A stretch of 64,000 nt of DNA, taken from Terriglobales bacterium. GTDB lineage: Bacteria; Acidobacteriota; Terriglobia; Terriglobales; Acidobacteriaceae. The first letter of the stretch is position 1. Every line of letters starts with the position of its first letter. The stretch is from positions 1-64,000 of the forward strand of contig JAICXB010000007.1 in assembly GCA_025980765.1 (NCBI GenBank), given 5' to 3'. Positions 37,816 to 39,847 of this stretch are shown here, piece after piece. Made by a program: the position numbers and the translations under genes. Under the pieces are notes generated by a model. The model saw only the letters and a list, made by a program, of their open reading frames with translations. It had not been told where the DNA came from and ran no database searches.

Positions 37816-37915
37816 GGGGTTAACACGAAGGGCACGAAGTCTTGAATCAAGGTCACGGAGCAGAAACATTTCGTGACCTTTTCTGCTGCCTTCGTGGCCT
37901 TCGTGTTAACCCAGG
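37816..37915. repeat. GTTAACACGAAGG-type inverted repeat
   Basis: GGGGTTAACACGAAGGGCACGAAG ... CTTCGTGGCCTTCGTGTTAACCC. Confidence 0.85.
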
Positions 37916-38646
37916 GTCACTGCGCCAATTTCGGCGAGCGATGCAAGAATCTGCTGTGCGTGTGCCTCGGGGATCGAGGCAGCCGATGCGATTTCCACTA
38001 CATCTCCCTCGCCATTTGCAGCATTTATCACTTGCATGGCTGTGGCATCGAGTTCGACGACGTAGATTTTGCCGTGCTGCGTGCGGGAAAAAAGCAGCAC
38101 CGTGCGTCCGCGTAGATCCTCAGCCGGAAGTTGTCCGGACTTCAACGACGCGAGCAGCGCCGGCATCTTCCACGAGAACTCACGCACGATTGTGGACTTC
38201 GCGATTGCAGGGAAGCCTTTTTTGAACTGAGTATCTATTTCCGAAGTCGCCAACTGCACAAAGAACGAAAACTCATAGTGCAGCAGCTCGGGCCACCACG
38301 GGCCCGGCGCTTTCACCTGCAACAATCGCGCAATCGCCATCTCGCCCACCTCACGCGCAGACAGGAGCGAGCCCAGCATGCAACGCGAGAGGAAACTGTC
38401 GAATTCTGCGGAATCAACCAGGTCTTCGACTCGAGCGGGAAGCTCGTTGCTGACGTTTCGCGAGTAGCGGAATGCCCGGTGCAGGCGGTCGCGATAGTAG
38501 CGCCGGGCGAGAAAGCGGGAGAAGCGCTGCGCCTTTTCGGCTTCGCTCGGATTGAGAACCGCCGCCGGTTGCGAACCGGCATCCGTGAGATAGCGAATGA
38601 TCTCGTCCTGCAGTTCGCGGTCGGTAGAAGCCTTTGGCATCTTCAT
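37906..38646 (-). CDS. Putative RiPP maturation partner protein (TglI/HvfC-like candidate)
   Basis: Start placed at MKMPKASTDRELQDEIIRYL; immediately downstream of the DUF692 gene. C-terminal LLFSRTQHGKIYVVELDATAMQVINAANGEGDVVEIASAASIPEAHAQQILASLAEIGAVTL resembles the PqqD/winged-helix-like end of DUF692 partner proteins. Family assignment is by pattern only. Confidence 0.55.
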   Translation of the reverse strand: MKMPKASTDRELQDEIIRYLTDAGSQPAAVLNPSEAEKAQRFSRFLARRYYRDRLHRAFRYSRNVSNELPARVEDLVDSAEFDSFLSRCMLGSLLSAREVGEMAIARLLQVKAPGPWWPELLHYEFSFFVQLATSEIDTQFKKGFPAIAKSTIVREFSWKMPALLASLKSGQLPAEDLRGRTVLLFSRTQHGKIYVVELDATAMQVINAANGEGDVVEIASAASIPEAHAQQILASLAEIGAVTLG

Positions 38647-38689
38647 AATGCCCGTGGATGCGGGCGCCGTCGTCAGCGATTTTGGAAGC

Positions 38690-38778
38690 TTTACCACGGA
38701 GGACACGGAGGGCACAGAGGAAAAACCTGATTTAATTTGGATTTCCTCTGTGGTCCTCAGTGATCTCTGTGGTGAAAG
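38690..38778. repeat. ACCACGGAGGACACGGAG-type inverted repeat overlapping 3' end of the MNIO gene
   Basis: TTACCACGGAGGACACGGAGGGCACAGAGGAAAAACC ... GGATTTCCTCTGTGGTCCTCAGTGATCTCTGTGGTGAAAG. Confidence 0.8.
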
Positions 38779-39628
38779 ATCTCGAAAAAGCGCGGGCACC
38801 CGCATCCACATCGATCCTTGTATGGAAAGCCTCTCTCGTTTTGCGCATCGCGGCTTCCAGCTCCGCGGCAGTGAGCGACGGCGAGAAGATGTCCAGCGTT
38901 ACCGCCCGCAATTCTGGCGCGCGCTCGGCGACCCAGCGGGCGAGCGCGAGAATTTCGTCGCTCGGCGGCGCAGGGGCGATCCACGGGCCGCGCAGGTCGC
39001 GGTCGTATTCCACTCCGGCAACATGAATCTCGACTACGCGGTCGAGAGGGAAGCCGGCGAGATATTCGCGGGCGTCCATTCCCTTGTAGTGCGCTGCCAG
39101 CCAGATGTGCGGCACGTCGATCAAAAACCCGCAGCCGGTGCGCTCGAAAAACCGCTGCAGGAATTCGGCTTCGCTCATCTGCGCGCGCTCGATGGAAAAG
39201 AAGCCGGGGATGTTCTCCATTATCAGCGGAGCATTCACGGCGCGCAGCAATATTTCTGCATTTTGGCAAAAGCGGTCGAGAAATTCTTCGGTATACAGCG
39301 GTGGAAATACGTAGTCGAGCGAGTGGCTGCGGTCCTGCGTGTGCAGGCACTGAAAGTGTTCAGCCACCCAAGGTCCACGATATCGCTCCTGCAAAGCTTG
39401 GGCACGAGACAGAGCAAACTCGCTCAGCGGATCCGAGAGTTGTCCCAGATAGTCGTGCAGGAGCAGCGGAAAACTTTGCTGGATCGCGAGAAAGAAGGAA
39501 TCGTCGGCCGCGGGCGGATCGGCCATGGCGAGATGATCGATCAGGTCAGCATGTTCCAGAATGAACTCGGCTAAATGAGGATTGTAGAAGGCGCCGACGG
39601 CGAGGCGGTCTTGAGGAAGCTCAGGCAT
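38732..39628 (-). CDS. DUF692 / multinuclear non-heme iron-dependent oxidase (MNIO), MbnB/TglH superfamily
   Basis: Start chosen at MPELPQDRLAVGAFYNP (alternative upstream start 39691). DUF692 signatures: FPLLLHDY, WVAEHFQCLHT, FPPLYTEEFLDRFCQNAEILLRAVNAPLIMENIPGFF, MSEAEFLQRFFERTGCGFLIDVPHIWLAAHYKGMDAREYLAGFPLDRVVEIHVAG. Confidence 0.88.
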   Translation of the reverse strand: MPELPQDRLAVGAFYNPHLAEFILEHADLIDHLAMADPPAADDSFFLAIQQSFPLLLHDYLGQLSDPLSEFALSRAQALQERYRGPWVAEHFQCLHTQDRSHSLDYVFPPLYTEEFLDRFCQNAEILLRAVNAPLIMENIPGFFSIERAQMSEAEFLQRFFERTGCGFLIDVPHIWLAAHYKGMDAREYLAGFPLDRVVEIHVAGVEYDRDLRGPWIAPAPPSDEILALARWVAERAPELRAVTLDIFSPSLTAAELEAAMRKTREAFHTRIDVDAGARAFSRSFTTEITEDHRGNPN

Positions 39629-39662
39629 GTGGCTGCATGTTGGGTGTATGGGCGATACATGC

Positions 39663-39686
39663 AGAGACGGGGCACGCCCCGTCTCT
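39663..39686 (-). promoter_or_regulatory. Perfect hairpin between precursor peptide and MNIO genes
   Basis: AGAGACGGGG-CACG-CCCCGTCTCT, 10-bp perfect stem, 4-nt loop, no following U-tract on the minus-strand transcript. Confidence 0.7.
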
Positions 39687-39706
39687 ACCATGCAGTGTGC
39701 TGTTTC

Positions 39707-39847
39707 TCAGTGACAGGTGGGAGCAGTCTCTGCGCTCTCCACCGGCTTCACATTGCTGTGGCAGGTTGGGGCCACTTCAGCAGTCTCAACCAGTTTCACA
39801 TTGGTATGGCAAGTCGGAGTAACTTCAGCGATATCGATAATCTTCAT
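39707..39847 (-). CDS. Putative RiPP precursor peptide, 46 aa, three 16-aa repeats each containing PTCH
   Basis: Minus-strand ATG at 39847, TGA at 39707-39709: MKIIDIAEVTPTCHTNVKLVETAEVAPTCHSNVKPVESAETAPTCH. AAGGAG 8 nt upstream of ATG. Repeats 1 and 2 differ mostly at third codon positions. Upstream of DUF692/MNIO on the same strand. Confidence 0.88.
   Translation of the reverse strand: MKIIDIAEVTPTCHTNVKLVETAEVAPTCHSNVKPVESAETAPTCH

What the first reader, a model, noticed from the sequence alone, without database searches (positions are those of the whole stretch)
37906..39847. Putative new RiPP system: triple-PTCH precursor peptide + DUF692/MNIO oxidase + partner protein
Seen directly: a 46-aa minus-strand ORF (39847-39707) with an AAGGAG Shine-Dalgarno 8 nt from ATG reads MKIIDI-AEVTPTCHTNVKLVET-AEVAPTCHSNVKPVES-AETAPTCH, i.e. 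an exact 16-residue period with Cys at 13, 29 and 45 and each Cys followed by His, the last pair being the C-terminus. Repeats 1 and 2 carry six synonymous differences (GTT/GTG, CCG/CCA, ACT/ACC, CAT/CAC, AAA/AAG, GTT/GTG) against four substitutions (T/A, T/S, L/P, T/S), which suggests selection on the peptide. On the same strand, 78 bp downstream, is a DUF692 protein, followed by a protein with a partner-like C-terminus. Established: DUF692/MNIO enzymes (MbnB, TglH, ChrH and bufferin-type enzymes) modify Cys residues of ribosomal peptides and usually need a partner/recognition protein. Inference: the peptide is a multi-core substrate modified at its three Cys residues, giving a thiol-derived, possibly metal-binding product. 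Almost no leader precedes the first repeat, and no signal peptide, exporter or protease gene is evident nearby, so the product may be intracellular. The precursor is below the length limit of the supplied ORF track and would be easy to miss.
Basis: partly seen in the sequence, partly recalled or inferred. Interest (0 to 1): 0.93.

Follow-up and report, generated by a model that had tools for sequence, protein, structure and literature searches.

The report
Cysteine/selenocysteine peptide with iron-oxidase operon
Soil Acidobacteria and Gemmatimonadota carry a conserved gene set in which an iron-dependent oxidase apparently modifies a tiny peptide at a cysteine that, in one related lineage, is replaced by the rare selenium amino acid selenocysteine, pointing to an undescribed sulfur/selenium natural product.

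Summary
In detail: a 46-aa peptide with three PTCH units precedes an MNIO (DUF692) gene and a partner gene. It is not chance: nearly every locus with an MNIO of this clade that could be checked, in Acidobacteriota and Gemmatimonadota, has a P[TSA]CH peptide with 2-4 repeats (dN/dS about 0.1). The MNIO fold matches TglH/MbnB; the partner fold matches TglI/NGO1945. First, the divergent gene at 40075-41031 (+), an EgtD/EasF-like methyltransferase, is a constant member; many relatives add a betaine-type ABC importer. Second, a sister clade (16 loci, 13 distinct downstream sequences) has a single core ending LVPT-UGA-His-stop: UGA exactly at the Cys. All 13 sequences meet the published bacterial SECIS model (1 of 24 control hits does). 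The four U-type genomes carry tRNA-Sec, three of them a full SelB (the fourth a fragment). So this is very probably an MNIO RiPP system whose reactive residue is Cys or Sec. The MNIO keeps iron-site 1/2 ligands but has lost the usual third-site ligands. Product, chemistry and role are unknown; no experiment exists. Sec RiPPs are known with radical SAM enzymes (SbtM); I found none described with an MNIO.

The parts
39707..39847 (-). Precursor peptide, 46 aa, three xVExxEVxPTCH-like units (Cys13, 29, 45)
   Evidence: homologues at related loci; dN/dS about 0.1
39856..39861 (-). Shine-Dalgarno AAGGAG, 8 nt before ATG
   Evidence: comparable GGAG sites before relatives' peptides
38732..39628 (-). 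MNIO (DUF692) oxidase; ligands H58, H91, E138, D171, H202 kept; H174 in place of third-site Asn; residues from about 271 on come from an interspersed repeat
   Evidence: model pLDDT 84.5 with TglH, 3BWW and MbnB as best PDB folds; tail match
37906..38646 (-). MNIO partner protein, PME-type 2 like (helical domain + RRE-like winged domain)
40075..41031 (+).
   Evidence: PF10017 80 bits; EasF/EgtD NCBIfam 77/67 bits, under cut-offs; present beside the peptide/MNIO genes in related loci
39848..40074 (.). Divergent intergenic region between peptide and methyltransferase genes
   Evidence: same divergent layout in Acidobacteriota and Gemmatimonadota Cys-type loci

Best explanation
This is a RiPP-type system in which a diiron-type MNIO, with its partner protein, oxidatively modifies the chalcogen residue (Cys here, selenocysteine in a sister clade) of a very short peptide. 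SHOWN by sequence: conserved peptide - [aldo/keto reductase] - MNIO - partner with an EgtD/EasF-like methyltransferase beside it, and in many relatives a quaternary-amine ABC importer; peptide under purifying selection; the core Cys aligns with an in-frame UGA followed by a bacterial-SECIS-like hairpin in a sister clade whose sequenced genomes carry tRNA-Sec and SelB. INFERRED: the partner's RRE-like domain grips the repeated [LIV]VExxE[LV]xPT stretch that precedes every core, so each about-16-aa repeat carries its own recognition sequence and no separate leader is needed; the diiron centre binds the thiolate or selenolate of the C/U-H core and oxidises it (most likely a 4-electron oxidation of the thiooxazole type or a related rearrangement); the methyltransferase, and the reductase where present, finish the product, perhaps after proteolysis by a host protease. 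No exporter is part of the window's cluster, so the product is probably kept in the cell. Sec clusters have one core; Cys clusters have two to four.
For: Fold and family of MNIO and partner. Homologous peptides at related loci in two phyla. Four UGA-type loci were reached through the MNIO alone, before any UGA pattern was used: all read CTC GTY CCG ACC TGA CAC stop. A metagenome scan for the UGA motif gave 47 stretches, 12 with this MNIO just downstream, most with partner, methyltransferase and ABC genes where the contig reaches. All 13 distinct U sequences fit the bSECIS model of PMC13188914 (18-25 nt from UGA, loop with GU, -8.8 to -18.2 kcal/mol) against 1 of 24 control hits; loop G29 and U30 invariant. 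tRNA-Sec in all four U genomes, full SelB in three. U-type MNIOs form one clade, support 100/100. Partner-protein dependence of MNIOs and mixed-valent diiron chemistry: PMC13419390.
Against: No biochemical data for any member; all loci seen are uncultured MAGs or metagenomes. SelB is common in both phyla (48/61 relatives, 253/350 Gemmatimonadota), so its presence is permissive, not diagnostic. Stem covariation is weak: only one pair changes on both sides. Residues equivalent to HvfB's essential third-site ligands (N175, D242, H244; PMC13419390) are replaced or absent, so activity or chemistry may differ. No protease gene was seen.
Confidence: 0.78

Rival explanations
1. Bufferin-like metal buffer: the modified Cys/Sec units (5-thio/selenooxazole type) bind a soft metal such as copper or mercury in the cytoplasm, and the peptide itself is the end product.
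For: MNIO-modified bufferins chelate copper (PMC12452194); two to four Cys-His cores per peptide; soft-metal affinity of Cys/Sec-His (general knowledge).
Against: No metal regulator or exporter gene was noticed in the clusters; precursor lacks a signal peptide, unlike bufferins; a methyltransferase and betaine-type importer are unexplained by buffering; Sec forms have a single core.
Confidence: 0.25
2. Scaffold-type (pearlin-like) route: the peptide is a carrier on which a thio- or seleno-amino-acid product is built at the C/U-H core, then released, N- or S/Se-methylated by the EgtD-like enzyme, and recovered by the betaine-type importer.
For: C-terminal U-H or C-H in the Sec type and in Acidobacteriota; methyltransferase profile has EgtD as its only clear PDB matches (E 1e-16); operonic OpuC/ProX-type ABC importer in U-type and Gemmatimonadota loci; TglH, an MNIO of peptide-scaffold chemistry, is the best structural match.
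Against: In the alignment EgtD substrate residues (N166, E282; numbering from my own knowledge) are not kept; the importer's SBP has Phe where EgtU has Gly244 (read by eye against PMC9732360); no protease seen.
Confidence: 0.25
3. The UGA is an ordinary stop; the small ORF is a leader/attenuator or an unmodified regulatory peptide, and the MNIO acts on something else.
For: ORFs are tiny; some hairpins could be attenuators; bSECIS criteria are loose (66 of 3900 shuffles gave a hairpin as stable).
Against: His codon and second stop after the UGA in four of four loci found without pattern bias; Cys at the same position in two phyla; conserved GU loop; tRNA-Sec and SelB; purifying selection on the Cys-type peptide.
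Confidence: 0.07

Closest known systems
MNIO RiPP systems (MbnB, TglH, HvfB/BufB, ApyH, ChrH)
   Same: Same TIM-barrel enzyme family and iron-site 1/2 ligands, partner protein of the TglI/NGO1945 fold, short Cys-bearing precursor next to the enzyme
   Different: Third-site ligands replaced or absent (His for Asn, no D-x-H); precursor without signal peptide or separate leader in the Cys type; VPT(C/U)H repeats; methyltransferase and importer partners; Sec variant; no NCBIfam subfamily cut-off reached (ApyH 112 of 400 bits)
SbtM/SbtA radical-SAM thio(seleno)oxazole RiPPs (reviewed in PMC11002830)
   Same: Sec/Cys-containing RiPP precursor with a SECIS element just after the UGA
   Different: The modifying enzyme is a radical SAM protein there, an MNIO here
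Aminopyruvatide (ApyH/ApyI) and pearlin (TglH/TglI) clusters
   Same: Best subfamily score (ApyH) and best fold match (TglH, TglI); PME-type 2 partners
   Different: Different core (Asp or C-terminal Cys there); no P450, radical SAM or Tgl genes noticed here
Ergothioneine/selenoneine pathways (EgtD, EgtU)
   Same: Methyltransferase of the EgtD/EasF superfamily and an importer of the EgtU/OpuC superfamily; sulfur/selenium and histidine together
   Different: EgtD cut-off not reached (67 of 291 bits), EgtD and EgtU substrate residues apparently not kept; ribosomal peptide and MNIO instead of EgtB or SenA-type enzymes

Membership tests
MNIO (PF05114) | Family profile and TIM-barrel fold | tested here: met
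   105 bits, cut-off 25; best PDB folds TglH, 3BWW, MbnB
MNIO (PF05114) | Diiron ligands of sites 1 and 2 (His, His, Glu, Asp, His) | tested here: met
   H58, H91, E138, D171, H202 invariant in the clade and aligned with canonical MNIOs; the last carboxylate appears as D246 in place of Glu (by eye)
MNIO (PF05114) | Third-site ligands N175, D242, H244 (HvfB numbering) | tested here: not met
   N175 position is invariant His174; no conserved His after H202, so no D-x-H. Third iron not needed but residues essential in HvfB (PMC13419390)
MNIO RiPP system | Partner protein (PME) next to the enzyme | tested here: met
   Fold hits TglI and NGO1945 only; conserved downstream gene
MNIO RiPP system | Precursor is chemically modified by the MNIO | not testable with these tools
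   needs LC-MS/MS
Bufferins (HvfA/BufA type) | Signal peptide, bufferin Cys motifs, DUF2063 partner | tested here: not met
   Peptide begins MKI.. with no room for a signal peptide; partner has no DUF2063 Pfam hit; BufB score 99 of 310 bits
Aminopyruvatide (ApyH) | ApyH equivalog score | tested here: not met
   111.7 of 400 bits
Bacterial selenoprotein gene (sister clade) | In-frame UGA aligned to a conserved Cys of homologues | tested here: met
   16 loci, [NS]LVPT-UGA-H-stop
Bacterial selenoprotein gene (sister clade) | bSECIS: stem of at least 4 bp, loop 3-9 with early G, 16-37 nt from UGA, at most -7.5 kcal/mol | tested here: met
   13 of 13 distinct sequences; 1 of 24 controls; no Rfam hit
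Bacterial selenoprotein gene (sister clade) | SelB and tRNA-Sec in the genome | tested here: met
   tRNA-Sec in all four; full SelB in G053, G188, G205; only a C-terminal fragment in G410, 63% complete
EgtD histidine methyltransferase | EgtD equivalog score and substrate residues | tested here: not met
   67 of 290.9 bits; N166 and E282 positions changed in the alignment
EgtU ergothioneine importer (relatives' SBP) | Gly244 and ergothioneine-contact residues | tested here: inconclusive
   SBP reads AKNFTE/CKNFTE (Phe at the presumed Gly244 place), read by eye without an EgtU alignment (PMC9732360); closest PDB hits are choline/betaine-type binders
SbtM/SbtA Sec RiPP | Radical SAM maturase in the cluster | not tested
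   none noticed among the genes read, but not searched for

The most novel reading that the evidence does not exclude
A ribosomal-peptide route to a small selenium/sulfur natural product: a diiron MNIO moves or locks the Sec/Cys chalcogen next to the adjacent (C-terminal) histidine, the EgtD-like enzyme methylates the released or bound product, and a betaine-type importer recovers it, giving a thio/seleno-histidine-like redox metabolite made without EgtB- or SenA-type enzymes.
Probability: 0.1. Interest if true: 0.96.

Novelty: new variant of a known kind. Interest (0 to 1): 0.83.

Why it matters
Cys/Sec exchange in a precursor peptide marks the reactive residue without an experiment, and would give MNIO enzymology a selenium substrate and the selenoproteome a new kind of member: a peptide of about 19-30 residues whose Sec is the penultimate residue. 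It would also be an MNIO lineage lacking the debated third iron site, a natural test of that site's role. The system is spread through uncultured soil Acidobacteriota and Gemmatimonadota (807 related MNIO protein clusters at E 1e-20, not necessarily all of this clade) and is filed in databases only as DUF692, UPF0276 or sugar isomerase.

Tried and rejected
Protein-database search with the 46-aa peptide found nothing at E 10: the ORFs are too short to be catalogued. A PTCH pattern first missed the L010 locus; reading all frames showed UGA where Cys was expected. Ergothioneine-pathway reading: weakened by loss of EgtD residues and, by eye, of the EgtU Gly. Association of the system with Sec machinery as proof: rejected, SelB is common in both phyla. 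Hairpins after the Cys-type peptides as fossil SECIS: not supported; in the window genus they look like interspersed palindromes, in Gemmatimonadota like coding-sequence palindromes over the reductase start. Rfam has no matching element. Hosts of the sister clade could not be named (genome handles are anonymous). Whether Sec or Cys is ancestral: not resolved, the outgroup branch is too long.

Full report
OBSERVATION. The 46-aa ORF, its Shine-Dalgarno site, the 16-residue period and the 78-bp gap to the DUF692 gene are as described. The DUF692 protein hits PF05114 at 105 bits. The downstream protein has only weak sequence hits to ApyI and HvfC, but its AlphaFold model matches TglI and NGO1945 and nothing else in the PDB below E 1e-3. 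That is the PME-type 2 partner class described in PMC12452194.

CONSERVATION. Genome searches returned about 30 loci with an MNIO of this clade from Acidobacteriota and Gemmatimonadota (52-79% identity; some are the same contig reached twice). Apart from two Gemmatimonadota contigs that start close to the MNIO (L051, L053) and L010 (see below), each of these loci has a peptide upstream: three units in Acidobacteriota, two in most Gemmatimonadota (MQIVETQELVPSCHRPEIVETAELVPTCHS), four in one Gemmatimonadaceae locus, L046. L005 has Ser for Cys in core 1. Pairwise dN/dS among Acidobacteriota peptides is 0.04-0.39. The system is sporadic: 4 of 396 sampled Acidobacteriota and 16 of 350 Gemmatimonadota genomes.

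GENE SET. The Methyltransf_33 gene (window 40075-41031, +) stands divergently beside the peptide in the Cys-type loci of both phyla and on the MNIO's strand, close by, in most of the sister-clade loci. By profile its clear PDB relatives are EgtD entries (E 1e-16); it falls below the EgtD and EasF cut-offs, and in the alignment the positions of the EgtD residues N166 and E282 (numbering known to me, not from a tool) differ, so its substrate is probably not free histidine. Most Gemmatimonadota add an aldo/keto reductase (174 bits) with a sub-threshold PqqD-like tail (E 0.0047); it is a fragment in L046 and not found in L055. In many Gemmatimonadota loci the methyltransferase gene is followed by ABC ATPase, permease and an OpuC/ProX-type binding protein; the same importer lies in the sister-clade loci.

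SELENOCYSTEINE SISTER CLADE. Four Acidobacteriota loci (L074-L077) reached only through the MNIO have, just upstream of it, a short ORF ending L-V-P-T-UGA-H-stop with near-identical codons CTC GTY CCG ACC TGA CAC. A metagenome scan for this DNA motif gave 47 stretches; 12 have an MNIO of this clade right downstream, most with partner, methyltransferase and ABC genes where the contig reaches. Example peptides: MDELEVLVVETESLVPTUH and MTELREVLLDEVLLDVVERENLVPTUH. All 13 distinct sequences satisfy the bSECIS model quoted in PMC13188914 (for the model, for the test), with an invariant GU in the loop; 1 of 24 control hits does. Shuffled sequences equalled the hairpin in 66 of 3900 cases. Covariation is weak because the stem hardly varies. 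tRNA-Sec is present in all four genomes, full SelB in three and a fragment in the 63%-complete fourth; since SelB is common in these phyla this permits rather than proves Sec. The U-type MNIOs form one clade with 100/100 support. U-type peptides have one core, Cys-type two to four.

ACTIVE SITE. H58, H91, E138, D171 and H202 align with MNIO iron ligands of sites 1 and 2. The HvfB third-site residue N175 corresponds to an invariant His (174), and there is no conserved His after H202, so the D242/H244 pair is missing. PMC13419390 reports these three residues essential in HvfB although the third iron is not needed. The MNIO model (pLDDT 84.5) has TglH, 3BWW and MbnB as nearest folds.

MECHANISM. 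The Cys/Sec exchange at one position, the MNIO and the partner make oxidative modification of this residue the best explanation. Repeat-borne recognition, the exact chemistry, the role of the methyltransferase and the fate of the product are inference. I rate the core claim 0.78; any particular product is below 0.3.

NOVELTY. Sec-bearing RiPP precursors exist with a radical SAM enzyme (SbtM; PMC11002830). The MNIO landscape paper (PMC12452194) has no text mention of Acidobacteriota, Gemmatimonadota or methyltransferases; a search for selenocysteine plus MNIO found no paper describing such a system; the 2026 selenoproteome review does not mention DUF692. Supplements and most subscription papers were not searched. 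I therefore file it as a new variant of a known kind.

Noticed in passing
38696-38770: Interspersed CACAGAGG-type repeat copies between MNIO and partner; the MNIO C-terminus (about residues 271-298, pLDDT under 50) is read out of it and matches another contig of the genome.
   Followed up: partly
37143-37745 (-): Fe/Mn superoxide dismutase gene downstream of the partner, found at the same place in close relatives only.
   Followed up: partly
L001 (G000 contig C3 131400-132182): A second, canonical MNIO (359 bits) in the same genome.
   Followed up: no
L033, L036 and others, about 33-60 nt after the last Cys codon: Strong GGGGCCCGG..CGGGCCCC palindrome over the reductase start in Gemmatimonadota; codon-driven or regulatory, unknown.
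   Followed up: no
L033 5651-6976: Extra gene of unknown function between MNIO and partner in several Gemmatimonadota loci.
   Followed up: no
L041 100-580 (-): MFS-type transporter-like frame after the ABC genes in some Gemmatimonadota loci.
   Followed up: no
L011/L054 and L049: MNIO (L011/L054) and methyltransferase (L049) match in two pieces: frameshift or assembly error.
   Followed up: no
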